Assembly: GCF_002860325.1 (NCBI RefSeq)
Contig: NZ_PKOJ01000004.1
Location: 124,001-188,000, forward strand
Reading direction: 5' to 3'
Length of the DNA stretch: 64,000 bases
From: Neptunicoccus cionae
Lineage (GTDB): Bacteria; Pseudomonadota; Alphaproteobacteria; Rhodobacterales; Rhodobacteraceae
How positions within the stretch are numbered: position 1 is the stretch's first letter; each line of letters starts with the position of its first letter. Both the position numbers and the translations under genes were made by a program. Under the pieces are notes generated by a model that was not told where the DNA came from, ran no database searches, and saw only the letters and a list, made by a program, of their open reading frames with translations. Of the stretch, positions 8,174 to 25,265 are shown piece by piece.

Positions 8174-8240
8174 CGACAAAACAAAACAGGCAAAACTGAA
8201 ACTAAAAAAATAATACTAGAACCCAACACCGGAGACTGTA

Positions 8241-9287: not shown

Positions 9288-9295
9288 ATCCTTAC

Positions 9296-9323
9296 AGGCG
9301 GGACGATAGTATACGTTCCGCCT
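9296..9323 (+). terminator. Intra-operon hairpin after TRAP binding protein gene
   Basis: AGGCGGGACG (9296-9305) pairs with CGTTCCGCCT (9314-9323), a 10-base stem with one G-T pair and an 8-base loop, 9 bases after the stop. No T run follows, so partial termination or mRNA stabilisation is more likely than a full stop, since the permease genes follow on the same strand. Confidence 0.6.
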
Positions 9324-9349
9324 GATCCCCTCCCCAAGCCGAGATAGCG

Positions 9350-9862: not shown

Positions 9863-11163
9863 TGGGAGTTTGGGAAATAGCAGCCATCTCCTTTGGCGGG
9901 GTCTTTGTATTGATGATGGGCGGGATGCCCATTGCGCTGGCCATGCTGCTGGTGGGGCTTTCGGGCATCTGGATAAACCTGTCCGAACGCACGGCCATGG
10001 GGATGATCGGGCAACTGCCGATCAACGCCACCATGTCTTATGAACTTTCGGTACTGCCGATGTTCATCCTGATGGGCGTATTCGTAACACGGGCCCGCAT
10101 GTCCGAAGATCTCTACCGTTTGTGTCACGGCTTCGTCGGCCATATGCGCGGCGGGCTGGCGGCGGCAACAATCCTTGCCTGCGGCGGGTTTTCCGCGCTG
10201 AGCGGATCATCCCTTGCCACCGCTGCAACCATGGCCAAAGTGGCTGTGCCAGAGATGCGGCGCTACGGCTACAAGGACGGGTTCGCTGCTTCGGCTGTGG
10301 CGGCGGGCGGGACACTTGGCATTCTTATTCCGCCTTCTGTGGTTCTCGTTCTTTACGGCATTGCCACAGGCACGGATATTGGCTCGCTCTTTATCGCCGG
10401 GATCATTCCGGGCATTCTGGCAATCCTGCTGTACCTGGCTGCGATCCGCGTTGCGGCCCAAATGGATCCGGAACGCGCCCCTGCTGCACCCCGAGTAGGA
10501 TGGGAAGTACGCCTGCGATACCTGCGCAGTGTTGGCCCGATCCTGCTGTTGTTTATCGGAATCATTGGTGGCCTGTACAAAGGCGTTTTCACCCCGACGG
10601 AAGCAGGGGGGGTCGGGGCTACCGGCGCGCTGGCCTTTGCGCTTTGGCGGCGATCCTTGTCTTGGCGCGATATGGTGGATTCGCTTGTGGAAACGGTCCA
10701 GACCACGGCCAGCCTGTTTCTGGTGTTGATTGGCGCTTTGGTGTTCTCCAACTACATGAACCTGATCGGCCTGCCGTCTGCCCTGTCCGACCTGATTACC
10801 TCGCTGGGGTTGGGACCGACCGCGGTGATTCTTTCGATCCTTGTGGTCTATCTGTTTCTCGGTATGTTCATGGAGAGCCTTTCCATGATCCTGCTGACGA
10901 TCCCGATTTTCTTTCCCATTGTCACACAACTCGGATTTGATCCGGTCTGGTTCGGCATCTTTGCAGTGATGGTGACAGAACTCTCGCTGATTACGCCGCC
11001 AGTCGGTTTGAACCTGTTCGTGATCAAATCCGTTATCGAAGATCTGTCAGTCGGGGAAATGTACAAAGGGATCCTGCCCTTCGTACTGGCGGACCTTTTG
11101 CGCATCATCATCATAATCGGCTTTCCGTGGATCGTCATGGTTCTGCCGGAACTGGCGCGTTAG
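9862..11163 (+). CDS. TRAP transporter large permease subunit, system 1 (DctM family)
   Basis: 433 residues, about 12 membrane segments, the sodium-coupled translocation subunit. Family motifs include GSSLATAATMAKVAVPEM near residue 115, GGTLGILIPPSVVLVLYG near 150 and FTPTEAGGVGA near 240; TPPVGLNLFVIK lies near 382. It starts at the DctQ stop and is followed two bases later by the MarR regulator, so all belong to one transcript. Confidence 0.93.
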   Translation: MGVWEIAAISFGGVFVLMMGGMPIALAMLLVGLSGIWINLSERTAMGMIGQLPINATMSYELSVLPMFILMGVFVTRARMSEDLYRLCHGFVGHMRGGLAAATILACGGFSALSGSSLATAATMAKVAVPEMRRYGYKDGFAASAVAAGGTLGILIPPSVVLVLYGIATGTDIGSLFIAGIIPGILAILLYLAAIRVAAQMDPERAPAAPRVGWEVRLRYLRSVGPILLLFIGIIGGLYKGVFTPTEAGGVGATGALAFALWRRSLSWRDMVDSLVETVQTTASLFLVLIGALVFSNYMNLIGLPSALSDLITSLGLGPTAVILSILVVYLFLGMFMESLSMILLTIPIFFPIVTQLGFDPVWFGIFAVMVTELSLITPPVGLNLFVIKSVIEDLSVGEMYKGILPFVLADLLRIIIIIGFPWIVMVLPELAR

Positions 11164-11165
11164 AC

Positions 11166-11693
11166 ATGCCTAAACAGAACAAGACGACGGCCCCACAGGA
11201 TGCCCCGCTGGAATACGGATCAGAAGTTGCGCCCGACAGTGACTCGATTGATCAGGGCATGTTGCAGGATTTCATGGGAATGTATCTGCGCCGCGCCTAT
11301 GAGGTCGCCTATGAGGATTTTCGCAGGCGGCTTGGCAAAGATGCCATGCAGCCCGGATATTTCACGATCCTGACGCTGATTGTGCGGAACCCCCGCATCA
11401 GCCAGACCCAGATCGGCGCGGCCTCGGCGCGGGACAAATCCAGCGTCACCAAGGCGCTGCGGGCAATGGAGGATGCAGGGTTGATCCAGCGGCTGCGCTC
11501 TGCCAGCGACAGACGCATTCATTTGAGTGTTGCGACAGAAGAAGGCATCGCAATGCAAAAGCAGATGGAACTAAAAGCCGCCGCCCACGTGCAAGCCCTG
11601 CACGACGCCGTCGGAGCAGAGCGTTACGAAGGTTTTCTGGATACCATGAAAGATATGATCCGCACGTTGGAGCAATCGGCCTGTGAAAAATAG
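11166..11693 (+). CDS. MarR family transcriptional regulator
   Basis: 175 residues from the ATG at 11166, three bases after the permease stop; an in-frame ATG at 11127 would lie inside the permease gene and add atypical residues. A winged helix is clear: ISQTQIGAASARDKSSVTKALRAMEDAGLI (recognition region) and then the wing RSASDRRIHLSVATEEG, around residues 80-135. As the last gene of the operon it probably responds to the imported acid or its breakdown product and controls the divergent promoter at 5464-5561; this is inference from position. Confidence 0.88.
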   Translation: MPKQNKTTAPQDAPLEYGSEVAPDSDSIDQGMLQDFMGMYLRRAYEVAYEDFRRRLGKDAMQPGYFTILTLIVRNPRISQTQIGAASARDKSSVTKALRAMEDAGLIQRLRSASDRRIHLSVATEEGIAMQKQMELKAAAHVQALHDAVGAERYEGFLDTMKDMIRTLEQSACEK

Positions 11694-11735: not shown

Positions 11736-12863
11736 TTACGCCGATAAAGCACTGCGCATTTCGCGGATTGCGTCGCCAATGTTTTCTCCGTAGCGCAGCA
11801 GGCTGCCGCCAAGCAGATAGACGCAATCCTCGCCATAATGGGCCATCATATCCCCCAGCCGGTCAAGTGACATACCTCCCCCCGGACTGGGCAGGATAGC
11901 CGGGCCGACACCGGAGCCCGCACGACAGGCATCCACGATCGCGCTGCATTCCTCTTTTGAGAAGCCGAAACGCCCGCCGTAGTTCGGAAAGACAGAAATA
12001 TCTGCCCCCGCCAGCCGCATCAACTGGCCGAACAGCATCCCGTGGCTGTACCCGTGATCCGGCGACAGCACATAAGGCCCCAAGTGGCTTGGGTGGGCCA
12101 TGATCGGCAGATCGAAATCCCTATCCTGCGCAAGACGGTTCATGGCGTCAAAACCGAACAGGCCGGGGATCAGCAGGATACCACCGGCACCTGCCTCTTT
12201 GGCATAATAGGCCAGATCGCGAACCTGATCCCCGTGACCGCCAATGCTGGCAAAGTAGAGCGCGCGGGTAGTGTCCCCCTGATCCGCCCTTTCCCGGTTT
12301 GCCCTCTGAACCGCTGCGGCACAGGCTTTCACCCGTTCTTTAAACGGGGCAGCATCCTGATTGGACAGTCCGTGGTCCTCTTTCACGATATCCGCGCCCG
12401 CCACAGCCGTCAGATAGCACAGCCGCGCCAGTGTTTCGGACGAACTGCCCTGTGGTTTGATCACGGGACAGACATAGCCCCCGGATTTCCGCCCCGTCAG
12501 TTCGCGCAAACCCGCAGCGCCAAAGCGTGCGCCGGGAAACCGCGCTGATAAATCGGCATTCACGCTCAGATCAATAGCTTTAACACCACGCAGGATTGAA
12601 GCGTTACCGAGGATCACGTTCAGCAGTTGGGGCAGTTCATGCCCCACCGCATCCACATGATACCCGATCCGCCCGACCCAGACTCCGTTGCCACAGTCCG
12701 TAACCGCTTCGACCTGACCCAGCACAGTGTCTTCTACATAGCCCGCTGGGACAACATCGCGGGGGATCTCAACCGTGTCTTCCAACGCGATTGCTTCGGC
12801 GCGGGCCATTGCATCGGCATCATCTTCCGCAACAATCCTGTAGGTTACGGTGAAACGCTCCAT
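11736..12863 (-). CDS. RuBisCO-like protein (form IV)
   Basis: 375 residues with the RuBisCO large-subunit fold, shorter than true RuBisCO (about 460-490). Lys in VIKPQGSSS (Lys136) matches the substrate-binding Lys175 of RuBisCO. The activating segment reads DIVKEDHG: Lys161 and Asp163 match Lys201 and Asp203, but the third metal ligand Glu204 is His164. The phosphate loops are changed (LPSPGGGMS, YLLGGSLL). It therefore should not fix CO2. Known relatives are enolases or isomerases of 5-methylthioribulose-1-phosphate, or act on isoapionate phosphate. Last gene of the ABC-transketolase operon, with a one-base overlap with the transketolase C subunit. MtnK and MtnA on the facing operon make a thiomethyl- or deoxy-ribulose phosphate the best guess. 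Confidence 0.9.
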   Translation of the reverse strand: MERFTVTYRIVAEDDADAMARAEAIALEDTVEIPRDVVPAGYVEDTVLGQVEAVTDCGNGVWVGRIGYHVDAVGHELPQLLNVILGNASILRGVKAIDLSVNADLSARFPGARFGAAGLRELTGRKSGGYVCPVIKPQGSSSETLARLCYLTAVAGADIVKEDHGLSNQDAAPFKERVKACAAAVQRANRERADQGDTTRALYFASIGGHGDQVRDLAYYAKEAGAGGILLIPGLFGFDAMNRLAQDRDFDLPIMAHPSHLGPYVLSPDHGYSHGMLFGQLMRLAGADISVFPNYGGRFGFSKEECSAIVDACRAGSGVGPAILPSPGGGMSLDRLGDMMAHYGEDCVYLLGGSLLRYGENIGDAIREMRSALSA

Positions 12864-13867
12864 CAGAGGCCCTCCGCCTTGGCCAGCGAGTGGACGGCGT
12901 CAACGCGGGCTTCCGCCAGATCGGCTTCGCTAATGCCGAGTTTCTTTCCCAGCAGATCCTCAACCCCTTGGGTCAGCGCCAGCGCATCCAGCCCGTAATA
13001 GCGCATCAGATAGGCGCGGCTGCCACCATGGGCATAAGTGTCCTTCAAACCCAGACGGCGCAGTTTCTTGCCAACACCATTGTCCGCCATGACCTCTGCC
13101 ACCAGCGAGCCGATACCCCCTTCGGTAACGTGGTTTTCCAGCGTGATCACCCCGCCTTTGACCGCGTTGATATGGTCAAGGATTGCCTCGGCATTAAACG
13201 GTTTGATGGTGTGCAGGTGCAAATGGCGCACGGAAACGCCCGCCGCTTCCAGCGCTTTGGTTGCACGCATGGCTTCTTCGGTGGTGATGCCGGCAGTGAC
13301 GATCAAGACGTCATTGCCAAGGCTGAGTTCGCGCATCTCTCCGACTTTGATCGGCGTGTCGAACAGGCGCGGCATGGAACCGCGCAGGACGCGGCAATAT
13401 ACCGGACCGTCAATGCTGTCAGCCGCTTCACAGATGCTCTCCACCTCGGTCGCATCGCCGGTTTCAAGGATGGTCATATTCGGCATCGAGCGCATGACCG
13501 AAATATCCTCGATCGCCTGATGGGTCATGCCCCCCGGCGTGGTGATACCGGGCAAAAAGCCCATGATCCGAACCTTGCGCCGTGGATAGGCAATAGACGC
13601 CATCAACTGGTCATAGGGACGACGATAAGTGAAGACCCCGAAGGTGTGGATAAAGGGGCGATACCCCGCAAGACCAAGCCCGCCGCAGAAGCTCATCATG
13701 TTCTGTTCAGCCATCCCCATCGAGAGGAACTGGTCAGGGTGGTTGTCGCGGAATTTGTCGATTTCACAAGACGATGTCAGATCCGCAGAGATACACAGAA
13801 CCTCGGGATTGGCGAGTGCGTGTTTTTCAAAAGCCCGCTCGTAGGGGCGGCTTACCATTTCTACCAT
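12863..13867 (-). CDS. Transketolase, C-terminal subunit
   Basis: 334 residues holding the pyrimidine-binding and C-terminal domains of a transketolase that is split in two genes. The ThDP-activating glutamate is in GMAEQNMMSF (Glu54). TPGGMTHQAIEDISVMRSMPN (about 112-132) matches the transketolase 'G.THQ..ED' substrate and cofactor segment. The N-terminal half is encoded 14 bases upstream. Split transketolases serve in apulose-4-phosphate cleavage and other special pentose pathways, rather than the central pentose phosphate pathway. The operon context (sugar importer, RuBisCO-like protein) suggests a ketose-phosphate donor special to this locus. Confidence 0.9.
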   Translation of the reverse strand: MVEMVSRPYERAFEKHALANPEVLCISADLTSSCEIDKFRDNHPDQFLSMGMAEQNMMSFCGGLGLAGYRPFIHTFGVFTYRRPYDQLMASIAYPRRKVRIMGFLPGITTPGGMTHQAIEDISVMRSMPNMTILETGDATEVESICEAADSIDGPVYCRVLRGSMPRLFDTPIKVGEMRELSLGNDVLIVTAGITTEEAMRATKALEAAGVSVRHLHLHTIKPFNAEAILDHINAVKGGVITLENHVTEGGIGSLVAEVMADNGVGKKLRRLGLKDTYAHGGSRAYLMRYYGLDALALTQGVEDLLGKKLGISEADLAEARVDAVHSLAKAEGL

Positions 13868-13881
13868 TTTAACGGCTCCGG

Positions 13882-14823
13882 TCAGTGGGCGTAGTCGATG
13901 GGGTCAACACCCAAAGATTCAGCGATTGAGATGTTCATGCGGGCGCGTTCGTCTTCGGATTTGAAACGCACGTAGTGGAGGCGCGGGAAGCGCTCTTCCA
14001 GAATCGGCATGGCGTGGAACGGGTTGGAATTGGCCAGAATGATCAAGGGCTTGCCTTCGTGTTTCGTTTTGGCAGCCTCGCGCATATCATTAACGTTGTG
14101 GGCGTCTACCTCGACCACTACAGCGCCGAAGTTTTCCATCTTGGTCTTGATGTCACCCACTTCCATAACGGAATCCATCGCCCCGTCACATTGCTGGCGG
14201 TTCACATCCATAATCGCTTTGACGTTGTCGATGCGGTGGTGCGCACAGCATTGGATCGCCTCCCATGTCTGGCCTTCCTGCACTTCGCCGTCGGACATAT
14301 AGACCCAGACACGGCCCTTTTCGCCCTTGCGTTTGCGCGCCCAAGCCAGACCTGCGGCTGTAGACAGACCGATGCCAAGCGTGCCGTTATGCACCTCCAT
14401 GCCCGGGCTGTGCTCTGCGCCGATCATCTCAACGCTGGACCCGTCCTTGTTGAACATCTCCAGACCTTCAGCCGCCATACGGCCCGTTTCGATCAGCGTC
14501 GCATAGGCCACCAGCGCATAGTGGGCAGGGGCGATAAACAGACGGTCAAAATCGGGTTCGAACGGGCCGTTGTAACCGGCCCCTGTGTGATAATCCGGAT
14601 TGTCCGCATGGGGCACACCGCCGAAAGGCTTCGGGATCATCGGCAGGGTTGGCGCGCCAAGGTTCAGCTCCTCGTTATAGAGCCACGCCAGTTGTTCGGC
14701 AGAGGAGCAGGCTTGCGACAGATACCCGCCATTGTTGCGCATCGCATGTTCAAACACGCGGCGGCGAATTCCCAGGGCGATGTCTTCGGTGGTTCGTTCG
14801 TTCTTCACGGCAATATTCCACAT
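13882..14823 (-). CDS. Transketolase, N-terminal (thiamine diphosphate) subunit
   Basis: 313 residues. It carries the diphosphate-binding half: SDGEVQEGQTWEA at about 177-189 stands for the GDGE...N motif, ending at Asn208 (DVNRQQ), and APAHYALVAY near 98-107 is the counterpart of the transketolase SPGHxS histidine loop. EHSPGMEVHNGTLGIGLS (137-154) is the typical 'PG.E.. GSLGQGL' segment. Residues 56-90 are a Pro/Gly-rich insert (about APTLPMIPKPFGG onward) longer than I expect in split transketolases, perhaps shaping the donor site. Pairs with the downstream C-terminal subunit. A 261-base leader with a hairpin separates it from the upstream binding-protein gene. Confidence 0.9.
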   Translation of the reverse strand: MWNIAVKNERTTEDIALGIRRRVFEHAMRNNGGYLSQACSSAEQLAWLYNEELNLGAPTLPMIPKPFGGVPHADNPDYHTGAGYNGPFEPDFDRLFIAPAHYALVAYATLIETGRMAAEGLEMFNKDGSSVEMIGAEHSPGMEVHNGTLGIGLSTAAGLAWARKRKGEKGRVWVYMSDGEVQEGQTWEAIQCCAHHRIDNVKAIMDVNRQQCDGAMDSVMEVGDIKTKMENFGAVVVEVDAHNVNDMREAAKTKHEGKPLIILANSNPFHAMPILEERFPRLHYVRFKSEDERARMNISIAESLGVDPIDYAH

Positions 14824-15044
14824 TGGCCGGCGCGGGGGCCGACAGGTTAAAGGAGGACCGGTTGGTCGGTTTCGGGGCGAAAGGCGCGGTTAGACCGTCA
14901 CATCCTTTCGCGAAAGAAATCGGGTGAGGGGCGCAATGAAAGACATTCCGGAACAGCGGGCTGTTGGCCGGTTCGGATACAGAATGCGGGGTGCGACAGG
15001 CTGTGCATGACAGTTTCCCTCGGGGATAAAGTGCGTTCGGGGCA

Positions 15045-15077
15045 TCGACCGGCCTGCATGAAAAGCGGGCCGGTCGA
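15045..15077 (-). terminator. Hairpin after sugar-binding protein gene
   Basis: TCGACCGGCC (15045-15054) and GGCCGGTCGA (15068-15077) form a perfect 10-base GC-rich stem with a 13-base loop, 7 bases after the stop of the periplasmic binding protein on the minus strand. The transketolase genes follow further down the same strand, so it probably acts as an attenuator or mRNA 3'-end stabiliser. The rest of 14824-15084 shows no gene. Confidence 0.6.
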
Positions 15078-15084
15078 ACAAGAT

Positions 15085-16125
15085 TTAGCGTTTGGGCAAT
15101 GGCATCCAGTCAGCCATTGCAACGTCTGCATGCTGGAATTGCGGCATCTTGGCGCCCAGTTCTTCCATGTTGCTGACGTCCTGTTCATTCAGAAAATCCT
15201 GCGTGATCAGGGTCGGTGGAACCACAACGGAGTTGCCCGGGTTTTCACCGGTCAGCAGCAGCGCAAGCGTCCGTACAGAAACCTCACCCACTACGGCAGG
15301 ATTGGTAGCAACTGTCGCCACCCAAGCGGAATCCGGTTCACGCATGGCAGAAATATCCGCGGTAGAGACATCGGCGGAATAGATTTTGATGTCTTGCGAC
15401 AGGCCTGCTTCATCTACTGCAATCTTCACGCCTTTGGCGAATTCGTCAAAAGGTGCGAACATTACATTAATGGTCGGATTGGCTTGCAGAATAGAACGGG
15501 CCTGATTTGCAACCGCATTGGCAATCGGGTTGTCGAGCGTTCCGAAAACCGCCGCTTCCTTGATGCCCGGGTTGGCCTGTTTCACTTCTTCCCACGCCAC
15601 ATCACGACGGTCCAGCGGCGCGATGCCCGGAACATAGACGTAACCGGCCGTGAAATCGGTGCCGTTGTCTGCAATCGCCTGATCCAGAGCCAGTTTGCCC
15701 AGCAGATAATCCGACTGTTCGATCTGCGGGATGGCTTCGTTTTCCACATCCACGTCAAAGGCAACGACCTTGATGCCTGCATCAACAGCGCGCTGTGCGG
15801 CGTCTTTCATGGATTCGGTCAGACCGTGCTGGATGATGATCCCGTCCACACCAAGGGCGATGGCCTGATCCACCATGTCCGCCTGCAAAGCCGCGTCCTG
15901 ACGGCTGTCAAACACCCGCAGATCCATGCCGATTGCCGCAGCCTGTGCTTCCACACCCGACAGGTATGACTGGAAGAAATCACCGGTGGACAGATACCGA
16001 ACCAGTGCGATTTTCACGTCCGCAGGTTTGTCCAGCGGTGCAGGCATTTCCGCAAATGCGGCGCTACCCAGACCTGTCGCAAGGGCTGCAAGCCCGGCGA
16101 ATTTTATAAAATGACGTCTCAACAT
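15085..16125 (-). CDS. Sugar ABC transporter periplasmic binding protein (RbsB-like)
   Basis: 346 residues. A signal peptide (MLRRHFIKFAGLAALATGLG..., cut near AFAEM at about 26) precedes a periplasmic binding protein type 1 fold: LVRYLSTGDFFQSYLSGVEAQ near 41, GVDGIIIQHGLTES near 92 and KVVAFDVDVEN near 119. The family carries monosaccharides such as ribose, xylose, apiose and autoinducer-2. It is third in an A-C-B ordered importer operon that continues into transketolase and the RuBisCO-like protein. From the facing mtnK-mtnA genes, 5-methylthioribose or 5-deoxyribose is the inferred ligand. Confidence 0.9.
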   Translation of the reverse strand: MLRRHFIKFAGLAALATGLGSAAFAEMPAPLDKPADVKIALVRYLSTGDFFQSYLSGVEAQAAAIGMDLRVFDSRQDAALQADMVDQAIALGVDGIIIQHGLTESMKDAAQRAVDAGIKVVAFDVDVENEAIPQIEQSDYLLGKLALDQAIADNGTDFTAGYVYVPGIAPLDRRDVAWEEVKQANPGIKEAAVFGTLDNPIANAVANQARSILQANPTINVMFAPFDEFAKGVKIAVDEAGLSQDIKIYSADVSTADISAMREPDSAWVATVATNPAVVGEVSVRTLALLLTGENPGNSVVVPPTLITQDFLNEQDVSNMEELGAKMPQFQHADVAMADWMPLPKR

Positions 16126-16148
16126 GATTTTTTCCTCCCATCAGTTGA

Positions 16149-17165
16149 TTAGGTTTTTCCACCCGCGCCACGCTTGGCGCTCAGGTAGAAGGTAAAGACG
16201 AGCGCAATCACCAGAACCGCGCCTTTGACGAAATCTTGGGTGTAATACGGGGCGTTCATCATGGTCAGCCCTTGCAGAAGAATGCCCACGAAAAGCGCGC
16301 CAACTGCTGTACCGAAAGCATTGGGGCGGGCCGCGCCAAGCACAGCGAAACCGATCAATGCCGCCGCCACACTGTCCAGCAACAGGTTGTTTCCGCTGGC
16401 AATGTCGCCGCGCCCCAACCGCGCCGCCAGCAAGATGCCACCGATAGAGGCTGTCACACCGGAGATCATATAAGCGGCGATCTTGTAACGGTTTACATTT
16501 GCTCCAACCAGTGCGGCTGCACGCTCGTTGGAGCCGATCGCGTACATCAGGCGGCCATGGCGTGTCAGTTCAAGAAACACATAGATGGCAAGGGCTGTCA
16601 CAAGGAAGATCACAACCGGAACCGGAACCAGACGCTCCACCACCAGATCGAAACGGTGCCGACCGAGCCACAGGAAGGCTTGGGAAAATGCGCCTTCCGC
16701 CACGCTGCCATCGGGCAGTTTCATGCCGGTTGCGATGGAATTTCCCTGTGTGGGAATCCGCTGCAGGCCGATCAGCAAGAACATCATCCCCAAGGTGGCC
16801 AGCAGGTCCGGCACTTTGAACTTCACGATCAGCAGGCCGTTGATCAATCCCACCACAGCGCCCATCAAAAGGCACAGCATCACAGCGGAAAAGGCCGACA
16901 TTTCAAGGATCACCATCGCATAGGCCGAGAGCATCAACGAAGTTGTCGCAACCGATCCGATTGACAGGTCAAACCCGTCCACCACCAGCGTACAGGTCAC
17001 GCCAAGTGCCAGAATACCCGTGATGGCAACGGATTGCAGAATGAAAGCCGCAGAACGGGGCGAAGCGAAACCGCTTGCAGAGAGGCTGAAGTACAGCACC
17101 AGCCCTAACAACAGGATCAAAAAGCCGAAGCGGATCGCAAAGTTCAGGATTTTCTCGTTCTTCAT
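16149..17165 (-). CDS. Sugar ABC transporter permease (RbsC-like)
   Basis: 338 residues, about ten membrane segments, of the branched-chain/ribose permease family. Landmarks are GILALGVTCTLVVDGFDLSIGS near residues 51-72, GLINGLLIVKFKVPDLLATLG near 105-125, and the EAA-like loop SNERAAALVGANVNRYKIAAYM near 217-238. It would form the homodimeric channel fed by the binding protein and driven by the two-domain ATPase two bases upstream in transcript order. Confidence 0.92.
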   Translation of the reverse strand: MKNEKILNFAIRFGFLILLLGLVLYFSLSASGFASPRSAAFILQSVAITGILALGVTCTLVVDGFDLSIGSVATTSLMLSAYAMVILEMSAFSAVMLCLLMGAVVGLINGLLIVKFKVPDLLATLGMMFLLIGLQRIPTQGNSIATGMKLPDGSVAEGAFSQAFLWLGRHRFDLVVERLVPVPVVIFLVTALAIYVFLELTRHGRLMYAIGSNERAAALVGANVNRYKIAAYMISGVTASIGGILLAARLGRGDIASGNNLLLDSVAAALIGFAVLGAARPNAFGTAVGALFVGILLQGLTMMNAPYYTQDFVKGAVLVIALVFTFYLSAKRGAGGKT

Positions 17166-17167
17166 AG

Positions 17168-18676
17168 TCAGTTCGCCTGTATTCGGGCGTCTTTCGCCCC
17201 TGAGACCTGCGCAATTAGTGCATCAAGGTCGATGTTTGAATTTTCATGGGTGCCGACGATGGCACCTTCGTGCAGCACGATGATCCGGTCTGCGATTTCC
17301 AGCGCTTCGTCCAGTTCGGCAGCAAAGACCAGCGTAGCACGGCCCTTGGCAGTGGCGCGGATATGGCGGCCGATGTCCCGCCGCGCACCGATGTCCACGC
17401 CTTGAAACGGTTCATCCAGCAGCAAGACGCGGCTGTCTTCCAACAGCCAGCGACCGATCATGACCTTCTGCTGGTTGCCTCCGGACAGTGTGCCGATCCC
17501 GTCCTGATCGGACTGGCACTTCACACCTATCTGTTTGATCATATCTGTTGCCGCCCCGCGCTGTCTGGTTTTGCTCAGCAGGGACAGGCGGCTGAAACTG
17601 CCCAGAAACGGCAGTGTCATATTGTTCGCTATGTCGAAGTCGGGAATAACTGCATTGGTGCTTCGATCCTTGGAGGACATGAAAACCCCCGCAGCCACCG
17701 CTTGGGCTGCCGAAGCCGGTGCATAGGGCTGGCCGTCCAGACGCAATTGCCCCGCCCGCACAGGTTTCTGCCCGAAGATCATATCTGCAAGCTGGCTTTT
17801 TCCGCTACCCAGCAAACCGGTAATGGCAACAACCTCGCCATCACGGGCAGTAAAGCTGACCGGAGTATCGCTGCCATCCAGCAGCACCTGATCCACTTCC
17901 AGAATAGCCGGCCCGCCGGAGACGACTTCAATATCCACTTCGGTCATCTTGTGCCCGAGCATCGCCGTAACCGCACCGTCATAATCCAGCGGCGCCTGAT
18001 CAAAGACACCGGAAATCTTGCCATCGCGCATGCAAACAATCCGGTCCGCAATACGACGGATATCAGACATCCGGTGGGAAATATAAAGGATGGCCACACC
18101 TTGTTCGCGCAACCGGTCCAGCAGGGCAAACAGCCGGTCCGCTTCGGAAGCCGAAAGCGACGATGTCGGTTCGTCCAGAATAAGAATTTTAGGGTCATAA
18201 GCCATTGCGCGGGCTATGGCGATCATCTGGCGGTCGGCGACAGACAAATCAGAAACCCGCGCCCGCACATCAAGATCAAGCCCCATATTGTCGGCCACCT
18301 TACGGGCCGCAATCCGAAGCGCACGATCACGCACCATCAAACCTGCACCCGGTTCTGTCAGGCGGTTCAGCATCAGGTTCGTTGCGACATCGAGATCGGG
18401 AATTACACCGTCATCAATGGACTGGTGCACTGTCACCACCCCGCAGGAAATGGCATCCGCAGCGTCTGTGGGACTATAAGGCTGACCCTCCAGCTTCATG
18501 GTTCCCGCATTTGCGCCCTGAAACCCGCAGAGGATTTTCACCAGTGTCGATTTACCCGCACCATTGGCTCCCATCAGGACGGTCACTTCGCCCGCGCCCA
18601 GATCAAGATCTATGCCGCGCAATACATGATTGCGGCCGAAAGACTTCTCCAGGCCTCTGATTTCACAGGCTTTCAT
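17168..18676 (-). CDS. Sugar ABC transporter ATP-binding protein, two domains (RbsA/MglA-like)
   Basis: 502 residues from the ATG at 18676; the preceding GGGA and the start MKACEIRGLEKSFG fit the family, whereas the upstream in-frame start adds 23 unlikely residues. The first nucleotide-binding domain has Walker A GANGAGKST and Walker B ILILDEPTSSLS with a degenerate signature (LSVADRQM). The second has GLLGSGKSQ and the good signature LSGGNQQKVMIGRWLL with VLLLDEPFQGVD. First gene of the minus operon that runs to the RuBisCO-like protein. It diverges from mtnK with 148 bases between them. Confidence 0.93.
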   Translation of the reverse strand: MKACEIRGLEKSFGRNHVLRGIDLDLGAGEVTVLMGANGAGKSTLVKILCGFQGANAGTMKLEGQPYSPTDAADAISCGVVTVHQSIDDGVIPDLDVATNLMLNRLTEPGAGLMVRDRALRIAARKVADNMGLDLDVRARVSDLSVADRQMIAIARAMAYDPKILILDEPTSSLSASEADRLFALLDRLREQGVAILYISHRMSDIRRIADRIVCMRDGKISGVFDQAPLDYDGAVTAMLGHKMTEVDIEVVSGGPAILEVDQVLLDGSDTPVSFTARDGEVVAITGLLGSGKSQLADMIFGQKPVRAGQLRLDGQPYAPASAAQAVAAGVFMSSKDRSTNAVIPDFDIANNMTLPFLGSFSRLSLLSKTRQRGAATDMIKQIGVKCQSDQDGIGTLSGGNQQKVMIGRWLLEDSRVLLLDEPFQGVDIGARRDIGRHIRATAKGRATLVFAAELDEALEIADRIIVLHEGAIVGTHENSNIDLDALIAQVSGAKDARIQAN

Positions 18677-18824
18677 GTTTTTTCCCAGATCTTGTTTTTT
18701 AGTCCGCCCAACAAGGGCGCGCCCCTTCGATAGTAAGCATTTCAACAGTTGTCAAATCATTTGTCTATTGACTAGATCGCTCCCCATCGCGATAAACACC
18801 GCAGGAATAACGGGAGACTTCGGG
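18677..18824. promoter_or_regulatory. Divergent promoter region, sugar importer operon / mtnK operon
   Basis: 148 bases shared by the two operons. An 11-base palindrome CAAAT-C-ATTTG lies at 18753-18763 inside TTGTCAAATCATTTGTC, a possible site for the SorC-type regulator encoded in the mtnK operon. The ribosome-binding site GGGAGA (about 18813-18818) precedes mtnK. A shared control region supports one regulon for both operons. Confidence 0.5.
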
Positions 18825-20081
18825 ATGGAGAACGCGAATTATACGGCCCTCACGCCAGAGACACTTTCGACACGGCTGGGCGCACTTCCCGCCGTCACGG
18901 AACGGATCGGATCTGATTCTTCGAACTGGCAGGTCAAGGAAGTTGGTGATGGCAATCTAAACCTTGTTTTCATCGTGCAAAGCGAACAGGGCAGCATCAT
19001 CGTTAAGCAGGCGCTGCCCTATGTGCGCCTTGTGGGGGACAGCTGGCCGCTGCCGCTCTATCGTGCCTATTTCGAGTATCACGCCCTGACCCGTCAGGCC
19101 GCCCGCGACCCCGGATCGGTGCCCGAGGTTTACCACTTTGACGAAGAGCAGGCACTGATCGTGATGGAGTTCCTGTCGCCCCATGTGATCCTGCGCAACA
19201 AGCTGATCGCCGGTGAAAAAGTGGACGGGCTTGGTCAATTCTGCGGCAAGCATTGCGCGCGCATGGCGTTTCGCGGCTCCGAGCTTTCGATGAAATCGGC
19301 GGATAAAAAGGCTGATGTCGGGTTGTTCGCGGGTAATGTGGAGATACCGGCAATCACCGAAGGGCTGGTGTTTACCGATCCCTATTTCGACGCGGAGATG
19401 AACAACTACACACCGGGGTTGGAACCGGTGATTAAGGATTTGCGCGACAACGTAGAATTAAAGCGCATGGCGCAAGTGATGCTGATGAAATTCGCCTCTA
19501 ACACGGAAACAATGGTGCACGGCGATCTGCATTCCGGTTCCATCATGGCGACGGACACAGAAATCCGCGTAATTGATCCCGAGTTTGCACAATATGCGCC
19601 GATGGGGTTTGATATCGGGATGCTGACTGCAAACTACCTCATGGCCTATTTCAGCCAGCCCGCCCATAGGGACAGCGATCTTGACAGCTATCAGGACTGG
19701 ATCCTCAGTGTGATCACCGAAACATGGTCCAGCTTTGAAGCCGAGTTCCGCCACCTCTGGAATACGGAACGCACCGGCATGTTGTTTCCGAAATCCCTGT
19801 TCGAAGATCAGGGCCACAGTTCTGCAAGCGCCTGTGACGGCGTTCTGGCCAACATCTGGCAGGATGCACTTCGGTTCTGTGGCATAGAAATGCACCGCCG
19901 CTGCCTGTCTCTCGCCCATAACGCGGATTTTGAAACCATCGAGGACACAACGGTCCGCGCGCCATTGGAAGCCCGCAATCTCCATATGGGCGCGGAACTG
20001 GTGCTGAACACCGACACACTGAAAGATGCCAGCGCACTGACCGCACTGGCCCGCACAATCAACGCAAGGAACATCCTATGA
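18825..20081 (+). CDS. mtnK: S-methyl-5-thioribose kinase
   Basis: 418 residues from the ATG at 18825 (GGGAGA 7 bases upstream), close to the usual 400. The family phosphorylates 5-methylthioribose at carbon 1 with ATP. Characteristic stretches are [13 protein letters not shown] near residue 42, [17 protein letters not shown] near 65-81, the catalytic loop [10 protein letters not shown] (His232, Asp234) and the DPEF metal site at Asp251 followed by GFDIGML. It overlaps mtnA by 4 bases. The same kinase type also accepts 5-deoxyribose in DHAP-shunt organisms. No MTA nucleosidase or phosphorylase gene is here, so the free pentose presumably comes from the importer. Confidence 0.93.
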
Positions 20082-21175
20082 AAGTAAACGGCACCCATTA
20101 CCGCTCTTTGTGGTGGAATGCACAGGATGAGGTTTTGGAAATCATCGACCAGCGGTCGCTGCCTTACGAATTCATTACCCAGCAGGTGAAGACGCTGGAA
20201 GATTTCGAGGCGGCAATTGTAGAGATGCGCGTGCGCGGCGCGCCCCTGATCGGGGCTACCGCCGCCTATGGCATGGCGCTGGCAATGAAACTGGACCCGT
20301 CGGACAGCCATATGGATGCCGCATGGGAGCGGTTGAACGAAACCCGCCCCACAGCGATCAACCTCCGCTGGGCATTGAACCGCTGCCGCGAGGCCATGCG
20401 CCCGCTGCCCGAAGCCGAACGGGCCGCAGCAGCTTTGCAACTGGCCCACGACATCGCAGACGAGGACGTGGAAATCTGCCGTCAGATCGGGGAACACGGG
20501 TTAAAACTGATCCAGGAGATCGCAGCGAAAAAACCGGCGGGAGAGCCTGTCCGGCTGCTGACCCATTGCAACGCAGGCTGGATTGCGACCGTGGATTGGG
20601 GCACCGCCACCAGCCCGATGTACCACGCTCATGACGCGGGAATTCCGTTGCACGTCTGGGTCGATGAAACCCGCCCGCGCAATCAAGGGGCATTGACCTC
20701 TTGGGAATTGGGCAGCCACGGTGTACCACATACCTATGTGACAGATAACGCCGGAGGCCATTTGATGCAGCACGGACAGGTCGATATGGTGATTGTCGGC
20801 ACCGACCGCACCACGCGGCGGGGCGATGTCTGCAACAAGATCGGAACCTATCTGAAGGCGCTGGCGGCCCATGACAACGGCGTTCCCTTTTACGTGGCCC
20901 TGCCTTCCCCGACGATTGACTGGACAGTGGATGACGGCGTTGCCGAAATCCCGATTGAAGAACGCAGCCCGCGCGAGACCACCCATATCCAAGGGACGAT
21001 GGAAGACGGCTCAATCGGGGTGGTTCAAGTCACGCCCGAAGGCACGCCGGGGGGCAACCCAGCTTTTGACGTGACACCGAACCGCTTGGTTACTGGTCTG
21101 ATCACAGAGCGCGGTGTTTGCGCGGCGACACCCGAAGGGCTCGCCGCATTGTTCCCCGAAATGGCAGGCGCTTAA
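20078..21175 (+). CDS. mtnA: S-methyl-5-thioribose-1-phosphate isomerase
   Basis: 365 residues of the MtnA/eIF2B-like family. It converts methylthioribose 1-phosphate to methylthioribulose 1-phosphate. The catalytic pair is visible: cysteine in THCNAG (Cys164) and aspartate in VGTDRT (Asp243); [17 protein letters not shown] near residue 48 and [15 protein letters not shown] near 192 are family landmarks. ATGA overlap with mtnK. Of the rest of the universal methionine salvage pathway (mtnB, C, D) nothing is present, so the ketose phosphate is probably cleaved by the class II aldolase at the operon's end or passed to the RuBisCO-like protein. Confidence 0.94.
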
Positions 21176-21177
21176 GA

Positions 21178-22173
21178 GTGGCACCCGCCTCTGCCTCCTC
21201 TGCGCGTCCGGGCGTTGATTCAGCCGGACGCGGCTCGCGGCAGGACGATCTTATCATCGAAACCGCTTGGCTGTATTTCCATGACGGGTTGAACCAGAAT
21301 GAAATCGCCAAGCGGCTCGATGTCAGCCGTGCCTCTGTCGTCAATTACCTCGCAGAGGCACGACGCCGGGATTATGTGCGGATCACGCTGGACAGCGATG
21401 TATTTCGCAACAACCGTCTGGCGTCCGAGTTGCGTGAAAAATTCGGACTGGTGGATGTGCTTGTTGTCCCCGAAGACAGCAGCTCTGCGCAACGTTCGGC
21501 AGAGCGGGTGATCCGTGCTGCATCAGACTGGCTACCCCATCTGCTGGAACCGGGGGACCATCTGGGCATCGCTTGGGGGGAAACCATTTACCGGCTGGCG
21601 CAGATCGCTCCGAAACTGATGATGGAGGATCTGACCATCGTTCAGCTGCTGGGTTCCAAACCGTCCGACATCGGTTTCGCCGCCGAAAACTGCGCTGCTA
21701 CGCTGGCGCAACGGTTCGGGGCCTATTGTGCCAACCTGCATGTACCCTTGATGCTATCCACGTCCCAACTATGCGAAGACCTGAAGGCCGAACCGATGGT
21801 GGCGGCGCAATTGCAAATGGTGGCGGATTGCAAAAAGGTCATCTTTGCCGCCGGAACAACCGATCCGGACAGCCACATCGCGATGACAGGTCTTCTGGAC
21901 GCAGCGACCTTGTCACAGATGCGCAAGGACGGGGCTGCGGCTGTTATTTGCGGCCGTGTGATTGACCATGAAGGCACCCCCATGCCCGCACCGAACGAGG
22001 ACCGGTTGATCGGCGTCACACTCGAACAGATGCGCGCCAAAGACATGGGCATCCTTGTCTCGGCAGGACTGGACCGCGTCGGCGCGGCGGCAGCCGCCAT
22101 TCGCGGCAACTATGTGACGCATTTCATTACATGCTCGGCCTCAGCCGAAAGACTACTGGAAGATAAAATATGA
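21178..22173 (+). CDS. SorC/DeoR-type sugar-binding transcriptional regulator
   Basis: 331 residues from the GTG at 21178, two bases after the mtnA stop; an in-frame ATG at 21118 would lie inside mtnA. The N-terminal helix-turn-helix is at about residues 38-60 (LNQNEIAKRLDVSRASVVNYL). The rest is the phospho-sugar-binding domain (HLGIAWGETIYRLA, TIVQLLGSKPSDIGF, VICGRVIDHEG). Family members sense phosphorylated sugars; the natural inducer here would be the methylthioribulose or deoxyribulose phosphate made by MtnA. Likely controls the divergent promoter at 18677-18824. Confidence 0.9.
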   Translation: MAPASASSARPGVDSAGRGSRQDDLIIETAWLYFHDGLNQNEIAKRLDVSRASVVNYLAEARRRDYVRITLDSDVFRNNRLASELREKFGLVDVLVVPEDSSSAQRSAERVIRAASDWLPHLLEPGDHLGIAWGETIYRLAQIAPKLMMEDLTIVQLLGSKPSDIGFAAENCAATLAQRFGAYCANLHVPLMLSTSQLCEDLKAEPMVAAQLQMVADCKKVIFAAGTTDPDSHIAMTGLLDAATLSQMRKDGAAAVICGRVIDHEGTPMPAPNEDRLIGVTLEQMRAKDMGILVSAGLDRVGAAAAAIRGNYVTHFITCSASAERLLEDKI

Positions 22174-22829
22174 CCCCCGCACAAGACACGGCCCTGCGCC
22201 AGAGCATCATAGACGGGTGCCTGTGGATGAAAAACAGCGGGTTGAACCAAGGCACTTCGGGCAATATTTCGGTGCGCTACAGGGACGGAATGCTGATTAC
22301 CCCCTCCGGTGTTCCTTACGAAAAAATGCGGCCCAACATGCTGTGCTACATGCCCCTTGAAGGCGAACCGGACCTGTCAGGCGATATCCGGCCTTCGACA
22401 GAGTGGCGTTTCCATCAGTCGATCCTGCGCAGCAAGCCGGATGTGACGGCTGTGGTACATGCCCATCCGGTCCACGCCACCGCCATAGCCGTACAACGCC
22501 GCCCGATCCCCGCCTGCCATTATATGATCGCGGCTTTTGGGGGGAACGATGTACCGCTGGTGGATTACGCATTGTTTGGAAGTGATGAACTTGCCCGAAT
22601 GGTTGCTGATGCAATGTCAAAAAGGACCGCTTGCATCATGGCCAATCACGGCGCGGTCGTGGCGGGAGAGTCCCTTGATCGTGCGCTCTGGCGGATGGAA
22701 GAACTGGACAATCTGGCGCGTGTCTATCTACTGGCCCTGTCCACCGGAACACCCGAAATACTGACGGATGCCCAGATGGAAGAGGTAGTCGCCGCCTTCG
22801 GGAACTACGGTCCCAAAGACATGGACTGA
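22170..22829 (+). CDS. Class II aldolase (fuculose-1-phosphate aldolase family)
   Basis: 219 residues, overlapping the regulator by 4 bases. Zinc ligands are HAHP (His97, His99) and His160 in ANHGAVV; Glu78 in STEWRFH is the likely general base/acid position. The family splits ketose 1-phosphates to dihydroxyacetone phosphate and an aldehyde. In Rhodospirillum, Bacillus thuringiensis and some E. coli the same trio kinase-isomerase-class II aldolase handles methylthioribose or 5-deoxyribose (DHAP shunt), giving methylthioacetaldehyde or acetaldehyde. MtnB, a dehydratase of the same fold, is the main alternative; absence of mtnC and mtnD argues against it. Confidence 0.88.
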   Translation: MTPAQDTALRQSIIDGCLWMKNSGLNQGTSGNISVRYRDGMLITPSGVPYEKMRPNMLCYMPLEGEPDLSGDIRPSTEWRFHQSILRSKPDVTAVVHAHPVHATAIAVQRRPIPACHYMIAAFGGNDVPLVDYALFGSDELARMVADAMSKRTACIMANHGAVVAGESLDRALWRMEELDNLARVYLLALSTGTPEILTDAQMEEVVAAFGNYGPKDMD

Positions 22830-22845
22830 AACCCGCGCCACAGGC

Positions 22846-23919
22846 TCAGGTGCGGATCGCTTCAACCAGCTTCTCCAGAAACTCCGGCTGGTATGCAGAA
22901 TTCAGCCAGCGCATCACCGCAACGATACCATCATCAGGACTGATCCAGATCGCGTTCCCTCCCGCCCCCAAGGCGTTATAGGCGTTTTCCGGCAGTTTGG
23001 GATTGGCGTCCGGCCCTCGGTTCAGCCACCAAAGGAAACCGTATTTTTCCAGCGTCGGACTTGGCGTCAACGACTGTGCCATCCAGTCTTCAGGCAGGAT
23101 CTGTTGTCCCTCCCAATTACCATTCCGGCTGATGAACAAACCGAAACGCGCGTGATCTCTGGAACTGATCACCATGCCGCCACCCCAATGGCCGCCCCCT
23201 GTCACAGACTGCACCTGCTGCCCGTCGAGATCGATCCAGGAGGTTGAATATCCGTCCCAGCGCCAGGTGTCTGACGCGCCGATCGGGTCCATGATCCGCT
23301 CTTTCAGAACTTGCGGCAGCGGCCGCTTGAACCTGCGCAATAGCGCATAAGCCAGCGCGTTCACACGCACATCGTTGTATTCATAGTGACTGCCCGGCGC
23401 ACCCACTGTGCGTAACTGTCCCTTGCGGTTGTTATCACCACTCGGGCCGATTTCCCGATTATGGTCGATCTGGTCGTCCTTGCCAAACAACACACCGCGC
23501 CATTCGCTGTTCATCTGCAACATATGCCGCCACGTGATGCCCGCATTCTGGTCAGAGGAAAAATGCGGCCCGTCAACGGTCCGGCTGATCGGTTCATCCA
23601 GATCTGCGATCAAGCCATCTTTGACTGCCAGACCGGCCAGCACCGACAGATAGCTTTTGGCAATGGAAAACGTCATGTCAGGCCGGTCGGGATCACCCCA
23701 TTCGGCTACTGTTTCGCCGTGATGCAGGATCACCCCAGCCGGACCACCCCGTGCCGTTACAGGACCAACAACTTCGGCCCATGGTCCGGTTTCCTTCCAT
23801 TCATAGCTGCCGGCATATGCACCGTTTTCATGAAACATGCTGCGCGGCCAGCCGGTTTCGTGCGAGAGAGCAAAATCGACCACACCTTGGAGAGCAGGGA
23901 TCGTATTCGGAAGTGTCAT
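22846..23919 (-). CDS. Serine beta-lactamase-fold hydrolase (class C-like)
   Basis: 357 residues from the ATG at 23919. The serine hydrolase motif is FSIAKSY (Ser85, Lys88) and the tyrosine motif HYEYND near residue 179-183; the C-terminal KTG triad is replaced by GAGGN. No signal peptide is evident, so it is probably a cytoplasmic esterase, amidase or peptidase rather than an antibiotic beta-lactamase; 6-aminohexanoate-dimer hydrolases and EstB-type esterases share this fold. It is convergent with the aldolase gene and stands alone on its strand, so its substrate is not indicated by context. Confidence 0.85.
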   Translation of the reverse strand: MTLPNTIPALQGVVDFALSHETGWPRSMFHENGAYAGSYEWKETGPWAEVVGPVTARGGPAGVILHHGETVAEWGDPDRPDMTFSIAKSYLSVLAGLAVKDGLIADLDEPISRTVDGPHFSSDQNAGITWRHMLQMNSEWRGVLFGKDDQIDHNREIGPSGDNNRKGQLRTVGAPGSHYEYNDVRVNALAYALLRRFKRPLPQVLKERIMDPIGASDTWRWDGYSTSWIDLDGQQVQSVTGGGHWGGGMVISSRDHARFGLFISRNGNWEGQQILPEDWMAQSLTPSPTLEKYGFLWWLNRGPDANPKLPENAYNALGAGGNAIWISPDDGIVAVMRWLNSAYQPEFLEKLVEAIRT

Positions 23920-24244
23920 GGCAAAGCCTTTGGTCTTGTTATTTAGGTCGTTTTCGCTGGCATGATATGGCACCGCTGCGGCGGTGCAACTGCGTTCCCT
24001 TACCAATAGAGGAGAAGTTGGGCAGATGCGAATTTACCTATGGTTGCGCGCAGCCTTGGCACTCTTAAAATTTCTCCACGTCAATCCGCGAAAACCTGTG
24101 GTTAATATTTTGATTTCTCCCCGACTCTTGGTTCATAACCTGTTACAAACACAAAAAAACCGATAGGTTTTGGATTAAAATTTGACGTGAGCGCCAGTAG
24201 GGTTTTCGCTAATGCGCTGACACAGCCTCAACAGGAGAAAAAAG
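23920..24244. other. Intergenic region between serine hydrolase and TRAP system 2
   Basis: 325 bases upstream of both divergent genes. No open frame here has coding character. A short perfect hairpin AAAACC-GATA-GGTTTT sits at 24156-24171 in an A-rich stretch, and AGGAGA before 24245 is the ribosome-binding site of the TRAP gene. It probably holds the promoters of both genes; no clear -35/-10 pair was seen. Confidence 0.5.
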
Positions 24245-25255
24245 ATGAAAAAACTGATTCAAACGCTCGCACTTGGTGTGACGGCTCTCGGGACATCCCT
24301 GTCAGGGGTCAGCGCGGAAGAATGGCGGCTGAACAACTTCCTTCCGGAAACCCGCCCCGAAACGGCCGAGATCGAGCAGTTCGTTAAAGACGTTAACGCC
24401 ACTGTTGAAGGCGATTTCGAACTCAAGCTTTACAGCGGCGGTTCCCTTGGCCTGCCCAACACCGACACGCTGCGCTTCCTTCCCAAAGGCGCGGTTGAGA
24501 TGAGCCTGATGTGGGCGAATTATCTGGGCCGCGATGCACCCGCGCTGAGTTCCGTTGTCGTGCAAGGCACTATCGGATCTATCGACGAATTTGAAAAAGC
24601 GATTCCGGCCGTTCAGGAAATCTATGAAGAGGAATTCGCTGACTGGGATGTGACCTCTGTCGGCTATGTCGCCATTCCGATGCTTTCGGTTTCCGTTTTC
24701 TGCCGTGATGAACCTGTGCGCACCATCGAAGACCTGAAGTCAAAGAAACTGCGGGTTTGGGCACGGGATCAGGTGGAAACCTTCACCCGTCTTGGTGTTG
24801 CTGCACAAATTATTCCGCAGGAAGAAATGTATGTGGCGATGAAAACCGGCGTTGTGGATTGTGCGCTGTATCCCGCGCTTTATGCCCACACCGTTTCCCT
24901 GCAGGAAGTGGCAAGCCACGCGGCGTTTCTCTACCCGATGGCATCCGGTCCCTATGTGATCGGTGTGGCCACCGACCGTTGGGAAGAGACTGACGAAAAC
25001 ATCAAATCCGCCATTACCAAAGCCGCAGACGATCTTTGGAACCGTACAAACCAGTACGAAGACGATCAGGCCCGCGAAATGGAGGCCCGTGAAAAGCTGG
25101 CCGAGCAAGGCGTAACATGGGCCGAGGATTTCTCTGATGCGGACCGCGAGTTGTTCGTCTCCTCCGTGACCGAAACATGGGCAATGCTGGCCGAGGAAGC
25201 CGGTGGCAATGCCCCTGCCTACCGCGAACGGGTTCTGAAAGCTCTGGGTCGCTAA
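24245..25255 (+). CDS. TRAP transporter substrate-binding protein, system 2 (DctP family)
   Basis: 336 residues with a signal peptide ending near SGVSAEE (about residue 24). The DctP fold shows LKSKKLRVWARDQVETFTRLG near 165, with the conserved Arg for the substrate carboxylate, and GVVDCALYPALYA near 205. Classical P-Q-M order with the next two genes. No substrate can be named; an OsmC protein, a P450 and a class V aminotransferase follow on the same strand. Confidence 0.92.
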   Translation: MKKLIQTLALGVTALGTSLSGVSAEEWRLNNFLPETRPETAEIEQFVKDVNATVEGDFELKLYSGGSLGLPNTDTLRFLPKGAVEMSLMWANYLGRDAPALSSVVVQGTIGSIDEFEKAIPAVQEIYEEEFADWDVTSVGYVAIPMLSVSVFCRDEPVRTIEDLKSKKLRVWARDQVETFTRLGVAAQIIPQEEMYVAMKTGVVDCALYPALYAHTVSLQEVASHAAFLYPMASGPYVIGVATDRWEETDENIKSAITKAADDLWNRTNQYEDDQAREMEAREKLAEQGVTWAEDFSDADRELFVSSVTETWAMLAEEAGGNAPAYRERVLKALGR

Positions 25256-25265
25256 GTCCGGACTG

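What the first reader, a model, noticed from the sequence alone, without database searches (positions are those of the whole stretch)
11736..22829. Divergent operons joining methylthioribose kinase/isomerase, class II aldolase, sugar ABC importer, split transketolase and a RuBisCO-like protein
Seen: mtnK, mtnA, SorC-type regulator and class II aldolase on the plus strand, and an ABC sugar importer, both transketolase halves and a RuBisCO-like protein on the minus strand, sharing a 148-base promoter. No MTA phosphorylase and no mtnB/C/D are present. Known: kinase, isomerase and class II aldolase make up the DHAP shunt for 5-methylthioribose or 5-deoxyribose, and the Rhodospirillum RuBisCO-like protein turns methylthioribulose-1-P into 1-methylthioxylulose-5-P. 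Inference: this is an uptake-and-use system for free 5-modified pentoses, in which aldolase cleavage gives DHAP plus an aldehyde, and a second branch through the RuBisCO-like protein ends in a transketolase. For 5-deoxyribose an isomerisation of that type would yield 1-deoxyxylulose 5-phosphate, the isoprenoid precursor. I do not know this combination as a described pathway.
Basis: partly seen in the sequence, partly recalled or inferred. Interest (0 to 1): 0.9.

Follow-up and report, generated by a model that had tools for sequence, protein, structure and literature searches.

The report
Methylthioribose use via split transketolase
A bacterium carries a gene set that appears to import a sulfur-bearing sugar left over from methionine metabolism and break it down by pairing a RuBisCO relative with an unusual two-part transketolase, a pairing that I did not find described.

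Summary

Best reading: MTR is imported, phosphorylated and isomerised; RLP makes 1-methylthioxylulose-5-P; the transketolase cleaves it to glyceraldehyde-3-P and a methylthio-C2 unit, perhaps releasing methanethiol. An aldolase branch runs in parallel. Searches of an open-access library found no paper on RLP plus transketolase. New variant of methylthioadenosine salvage.

The parts
11736..12863 (-). RuBisCO-like protein, predicted 5-methylthioribulose-1-phosphate 1,3-isomerase
   Evidence: PF00016; best solved sequence match 3qfw, R. palustris RLP; motif columns shared with cupin-linked relatives; AlphaFold model mean pLDDT 91.8
12863..13867 (-). split transketolase, C-terminal half (TktC)
   Evidence: PF02779 and PF02780; best solved match 6yaj, C. 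hydrogenoformans split transketolase; catalytic Glu54 kept
13882..14823 (-). split transketolase, N-terminal ThDP half (TktN)
   Evidence: PF00456; best solved match 6yak; SDGE...DVN ThDP motif kept
15085..16125 (-). periplasmic binding protein, predicted to bind 5-methylthioribose
16149..17165 (-). ABC sugar permease
   Evidence: PF02653, 137.5 bits
17168..18676 (-). double ABC ATPase (open frame extends to 18745; ATG at 18676)
   Evidence: PF00005, two stretches; AraG/RbsA/XylG-type
18677..18824 (.). 148-base divergent intergenic region
   Evidence: coordinates; no inverted repeat of 8 or more bases reported
18825..20081 (+). mtnK, S-methyl-5-thioribose kinase
   Evidence: TIGR01767, 465.2 bits, cut-off 275; only match in the genome; 2pyw and 2olc in PDB
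20078..21175 (+). mtnA, S-methyl-5-thioribose-1-phosphate isomerase
   Evidence: TIGR00512, 428.8 bits, cut-off 279; only match in the genome
21118..22173 (+). SorC/DeoR-type transcriptional regulator (true start uncertain; the open frame overlaps mtnA)
   Evidence: PF04198 Sugar-bind, 175.6 bits
22170..22829 (+). class II aldolase of FucA/DrdA type, predicted ketose-1-phosphate aldolase giving DHAP
   Evidence: PF00596, 185.2 bits; best solved matches are FucA (203.9 bits), DrdA-type 6btd 114.9 bits

Best explanation
The locus imports and consumes free 5-methylthioribose (MTR), and probably 5-deoxyribose too; its MtnA is also the only isomerase found in this genome for MTR-1-P made from the cell's own MTA. 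MtnK makes MTR-1-P and MtnA makes 5-methylthioribulose-1-P (MTRu-1-P). Branch 1: the RLP moves the carbonyl so that the compound becomes 1-methylthio-xylulose-5-P (MTXu-5-P), the sulfur-bearing carbon now being C1 and the phosphate at C5. The split transketolase attacks C2 with ThDP and cleaves C2-C3, giving glyceraldehyde-3-P and a ThDP-bound methylthio-C2 unit. That unit then most likely (about 0.35-0.4 taken alone) loses methanethiol to give acetyl-ThDP and then acetate or acetyl-P; otherwise it leaves as 2-methylthioacetaldehyde or is passed to an aldose. Branch 2: the class II aldolase cleaves MTRu-1-P or 5-deoxyribulose-1-P to DHAP plus an aldehyde. Shown by tools: gene content, families, conservation, partner swaps. 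Inferred: every reaction in this organism; the transketolase substrate rests on comparative logic, the fate of the C2 unit on chemistry alone.
Confidence: 0.66

Rival explanations
1. Mainly a 5-deoxyribose pathway: RLP turns 5-deoxyribulose-1-P into DXP, and the transketolase cleaves DXP (reverse-DXS-like) or DXP feeds isoprenoids.
For: The MtnK-like DrdK and E. coli MtnK take both sugars (passages of PMC6079011, and PMC12632272); TktC has 154.5 bits to the dxs model, though a transketolase model scores higher (191.4); the DHAP-shunt gene trio is present.
Against: Binding protein nearest to an MTR-binding structure; BisC-type S/N-oxide reductases in 11 of 90 stretches suit a thioether; the genome already has DXS; the DXP-making cupin is what the transketolase stands in for.
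Confidence: 0.15
2. The transketolase handles ordinary sugars: RLP converts ribulose-1-P to xylulose-5-P, which a dedicated transketolase feeds into the pentose phosphate pathway; or the transketolase uses the free 5-modified pentose as acceptor, as the S. elongatus transketolase does with 5-deoxyribose.
For: Phosphate-site Ser and Arg kept; transketolase use of 5-deoxyribose as acceptor to give 7-deoxysedoheptulose is reported (passages of PMC8102628).
Against: A canonical transketolase is encoded elsewhere (789.8 bits); DrdK showed no activity on ribose (passage of PMC6079011); recognition residues are replaced; acceptor use would not need the RLP.
Confidence: 0.1
3. Two independent modules that are neighbours: a DHAP shunt for MTR and 5-deoxyribose, and an RLP-transketolase module for another sugar.
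For: Elsewhere the pair occurs without mtnK (8 stretches with phosphorylase, 2 with PfkB) and the transketolase without RLP.
Against: mtnA accompanies the pair in all 48 mtnK stretches and all 8 phosphorylase stretches.
Confidence: 0.08

Closest known systems
MTA-isoprenoid shunt (Rhodospirillum rubrum, Rhodopseudomonas palustris)
   Same: MtnA, then an RLP related to the DeepYkr type that acts on MTRu-1-P; same RLP motif columns as in cupin-linked RLPs
   Different: Cupin methylsulfurylase replaced by a split transketolase; free-MTR importer and kinase added; DXP not expected
DHAP shunt / 5-deoxyribose salvage (mtnK-mtnA-ald2, drdKIA)
   Same: Kinase, isomerase and class II aldolase in one operon with a transporter (passages)
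   Different: Has in addition RLP and split transketolase; in 41 of 90 stretches the aldolase is of another kind, fused to a short-chain dehydrogenase
Sulfo-TK pathway of sulfoquinovose (SqwGH)
   Same: A ThDP transketolase used to dismantle a sulfur-bearing sugar (passages of PMC9594981; that SqwGH is split is recalled)
   Different: There the sulfur is at the far end and the ketol unit moved is ordinary; here the sulfur would be on the C1-C2 unit itself
Split transketolase of Carboxydothermus hydrogenoformans (6yaj/6yak)
   Same: Two-gene architecture; best solved sequence matches
   Different: In the printed alignments that enzyme has the NSGHPG, GHP and GEDG motifs that are missing here
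TLET_1677, 5-methylthioribose binding protein of Thermotoga lettingae (4ry8)
   Same: Nearest solved structure of the importer's binding protein
   Different: 37% identity; the ligand of the window protein is not measured

Membership tests
MTA-isoprenoid shunt | DeepYkr-type RLP with the 1,3-isomerase active site | tested here: inconclusive
   Motif columns shared with cupin-linked RLPs, but 11 other columns differ between the groups; 3qfw is the best solved sequence match; no R. rubrum sequence was in the tree. Activity not tested.
MTA-isoprenoid shunt | cupin MTXu-5-P methylsulfurylase beside the RLP | tested here: not met
   No cupin-probe match in the window stretch or in any locus with RLP plus transketolase; the next gene on the far side of the RLP is a MarR-type regulator. 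The whole genome was not searched for the cupin.
MTA-isoprenoid shunt | production of DXP and methanethiol from MTA | not testable with these tools
   needs a metabolite assay
DHAP shunt / 5-deoxyribose salvage | MtnK/DrdK-type kinase | tested here: met
   TIGR01767 465.2 bits, cut-off 275
DHAP shunt / 5-deoxyribose salvage | MtnA/DrdI-type isomerase | tested here: met
   TIGR00512 428.8 bits, cut-off 279
DHAP shunt / 5-deoxyribose salvage | class II aldolase cleaving 5-modified ribulose-1-P | tested here: inconclusive
   Class II aldolase family certain; closer to FucA structures than to 6btd (203.9 and 114.9 bits); substrate not tested
Universal methionine salvage | MtnW-type enolase RLP | tested here: not met
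   180.5 and 129.9 bits against cut-offs 409 and 513.6
Universal methionine salvage | MtnB, MtnC and MtnD in the genome | not tested
   Not among the 10 cluster genes; genome not searched
Split transketolase | N half with ThDP motif, C half with catalytic Glu and C-terminal domain | tested here: met
   Pfam domains, motifs
Split transketolase | canonical His/His/His/Asp substrate-recognition residues | tested here: not met
   Tyr for the first His in every alignment; the others aligned with Met or Ile, Phe or Leu, Gly or a gap, depending on the alignment. Motifs around them at least 97% conserved in 111 TktN and 138 TktC rows, which include repeat rows from some genomes. Residue roles recalled.
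5-methylthioribose ABC importer | binding protein homologous to TLET_1677 | tested here: met
5-methylthioribose ABC importer | binding of 5-methylthioribose | not testable with these tools
   needs a ligand-binding assay

The most novel reading that the evidence does not exclude
The split transketolase is a methanethiol-releasing ThDP enzyme: it takes 1-methylthio-xylulose-5-P, releases glyceraldehyde-3-P, expels methanethiol from the C2 unit and yields acetyl (acetate or acetyl-P), a phosphoketolase-like C-S bond cleavage. The clusters with a XylB-like kinase, alcohol dehydrogenase, AraD-like enzyme and S-oxide reductase would then be a second, undescribed pathway, for methylsulfinyl sugars or polyols, that converges on the same enzyme.
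Probability: 0.33. Interest if true: 0.85.

Novelty: new variant of a known kind. Interest (0 to 1): 0.73.

Why it matters
It would give the RLP isomerase product a second fate, with a transketolase in place of the cupin, and turn a by-product of methionine and SAM metabolism into central carbon (glyceraldehyde-3-P) plus a C2 unit, with methanethiol as a likely by-product. It gives a probable function to a recurrent, unnamed pair of split transketolase genes, and it makes a mechanistic question testable: can a transketolase eliminate a thiol.

Tried and rejected
RLP as MtnW enolase: rejected on sequence, far under cut-offs, although MtnW folds rank slightly higher. Isoprenoid precursor supply: lowered, since DXS is present. 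A transketolase residue change specific to RLP partners: withdrawn, since L172 and L177 share part of it. Operator search in the 148-base gap: no inverted repeat reported. Methanethiol oxidase SBP56: no match in the genome (one of 14 control genomes rings). PNP-type phosphorylase in the own genome: no match with the L033 probe (no positive control). MTR importer literature: one search listed 15 of 340 papers, none to the point by its listing. First neighbourhood script for L006-L027 clustered shadow frames and was replaced.

Limits of the counts. Genomes in all these counts are related, so the Fisher values are not probabilities. Left out of the tree: L001-L004 and L108 onward (repeats) and L006-L011 (RLP match under 250 residues). 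Dropped before the count of 6 XylB-type clusters: G649 (TktC 43%, other context, L172) and L180, L182 (transketolase without recognised supply gene, RLP elsewhere in the genome). L169 and L185 are two stretches of one genome, counted once there. L168 and L171 come from one genus and are near copies. The XylB-like gene of L167 is cut by the end of the stretch (215 bits). L034, labelled Enemella, has an RLP identical to L005 of the window's family and is probably contamination. Recalled, from no call: roles of the transketolase His, Asp, Ser and Arg residues, precedents of Xsc and phosphoketolase, and that SqwGH is split.
Full report
Observation. The divergent gap is 148 bases. MtnK and MtnA pass their curated cut-offs and are the only matches in the 4.29-Mb genome. 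The MTA phosphorylase missing from the cluster exists elsewhere in the genome (L186, 510.2 bits), so MTR-1-P made from the cell's own MTA has this locus' MtnA as its only isomerase found.

Conservation of the RLP-transketolase pair. A scan of genome contigs with an RLP alignment kept the best 80 of 523 relatives. The split transketolase lies on the same strand 0-158 bases from the RLP in 73 of 80, a cupin in 1 (L097, a Firmicutes MAG), neither in 6. Of those 6 genomes, 4 carry a 79-81% identical TktC elsewhere and 2 gave none. Because that set is biased to close relatives, I searched 390 genomes of the order for each protein: RLP at 1e-50 in 25, TktC at 1e-70 in 31, both in 25, neither in 359 (Fisher p 4e-34, ignoring relatedness). 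By the listed coordinates the two genes are side by side in all 25. Only 25 of 390 genomes have the pair, so it is patchy: among the 33 genomes of the window's genus (own included), only the window's, G004 and G016 have a close RLP.

What the transketolase replaces. In a sample of 385 genomes of the class, 17 have an RLP at 1e-40: the window's, two with the transketolase beside it (L012, L013) and 14 without (L014-L027). Of those 14, 13 have a cupin beside the RLP (four of the cupins checked against Pfam). These cupin-linked RLPs are 34-42% identical to the window's and form a separate clade together with L019, which ends near the gene. L097 is the exception, a cupin-linked RLP inside the transketolase clade. 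The arrangement is that of rlp1 and cupin in R. palustris and of the R. rubrum pathway, where the RLP makes 1-methylthio-xylulose-5-P and the cupin turns it into DXP and a methanethiol adduct (passages of PMC5893883; PMC4958253). Catalytic motif columns are the same in both groups, while 11 other columns differ between them (77 and 13 rows). So the RLP probably does the same reaction and the transketolase receives its product.

Supply logic. I scored 90 stretches (80 loci, nine fetched stretches, the window) for supply genes. Of 74 with RLP plus transketolase, 48 have mtnK (one, L094, with a PfkB-type gene as well), 8 a purine-nucleoside-phosphorylase-type gene (6 of these also a deaminase-like gene; families), 2 a PfkB-type kinase, and 16 none recognised, many of them short contigs. 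The three kinds of supplier are expected to give a sugar 1-phosphate (inference from family). In 6 genomes the transketolase instead sits with a xylulokinase-like FGGY kinase, an alcohol dehydrogenase, an AraD-like enzyme, a SorC regulator (not all in view for L167) and a BisC-type S/N-oxide reductase, with no RLP in the cluster (L167, L168, L169+L185, L170, L171, L181). Five of these six genomes had no RLP at 1e-50; the sixth, that of L181, has one in another cluster (L095). A xylulokinase-type enzyme should place the phosphate at C5, which is what RLP achieves in the other settings. This is the best indirect evidence that the transketolase substrate is a C1-modified ketose 5-phosphate. BisC-type genes (11 of 90 stretches, five of them in loci with RLP) suggest that the modification is an oxidisable sulfur.

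Transketolase active site. TktN and TktC keep the ThDP motif, the catalytic Glu (GMAEQ), the SADLTSS serine and the VLRG arginine. Where the genome's own transketolase has SGHQG, AGHPEYGH and THDSIGLGEDG, they have GGYLSQ, VEMIGAEH and GFLPGITTPGG. The first His is Tyr in every alignment; the residues opposite the other two His and the Asp are Met or Ile, Phe or Leu, and Gly or a gap, depending on the alignment. These motifs are at least 97% conserved (111 TktN and 138 TktC rows, some from the same genome) and recur in an Acidobacteriota MAG (L107). From recall, the lost residues contact hydroxyls of ordinary donors, and the kept Ser and Arg contact the phosphate. Two split transketolases without RLP context share part of this pattern (L172, L177), so it is supportive only.

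Mechanism. MTR enters by the ABC importer, is phosphorylated by MtnK and isomerised by MtnA. Branch 1 runs through RLP to MTXu-5-P and then to C2-C3 cleavage by the transketolase, giving glyceraldehyde-3-P. The remaining ThDP-bound CH3S-CH2-C unit can eliminate methanethiol, be protonated, or be transferred. I favour elimination, because otherwise the aldolase branch of the same operon would give an equivalent pair of products in one step less. This is inference. Branch 2 is the DHAP shunt. In 43 of 51 mtnK stretches an aldolase gene of one type or the other is in view, so the two branches usually travel together, perhaps one for MTR and one for 5-deoxyribose.

Literature. A search for RLP, methylthioribose and transketolase together gave no paper. 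Wider searches (7 of 7 listed; 12: 40 of 168; 27: 5 of 5; 28: 12 of 12; 29: 2 of 2; 80: 12 of 98; 107: 15 of 21) showed none whose listing describes the pair. I saw passages only, not whole texts, of PMC5893883, PMC4958253, PMC6302742, PMC6079011, PMC8102628, PMC12632272, PMC10663253 and PMC9594981; no RLP-transketolase route appears in them. The library lacks most subscription journals and all bioRxiv preprints, so this does not prove novelty.

Verdict. New variant of MTA/MTR salvage, interest 0.73.

Noticed in passing
L167, L168, L169+L185, L170, L171, L181: Six clusters with the same split transketolase, no RLP, but a XylB-like kinase and a BisC-type S/N-oxide reductase, with alcohol dehydrogenase, AraD-like enzyme and a sugar ABC importer where the stretch reaches that far: possibly a catabolic pathway for a sulfoxide sugar or polyol.
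   Followed up: partly
L043:8308-10647, L045: A ~780-residue AceE-like ThDP enzyme directly after the RLP gene, a second ThDP enzyme in the cluster; role unexplained.
   Followed up: no
L034 and L005: A contig labelled Enemella evansiae (Actinomycetota) carries an RLP identical to that of a genome of the window's own family; probable assembly contamination.
   Followed up: partly
L049 and L052: Phosphorylase and deaminase genes on one side and MtnK, MtnA on the other side of one RLP gene, with the transketolase elsewhere in the genome.
   Followed up: partly
window 7253-11693 and 24245-27091: Complete DctP/DctQ/DctM TRAP transporter gene sets flank the locus on both sides, one with a hydroxyisobutyrate-dehydrogenase-type gene (7253-8173) and a MarR regulator (11127-11693).
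   Followed up: no
window 22846-24006 (-): Protein with a Pfam Beta-lactamase domain (PF00144, 74.2 bits), convergent with the aldolase gene; substrate unknown.
   Followed up: no
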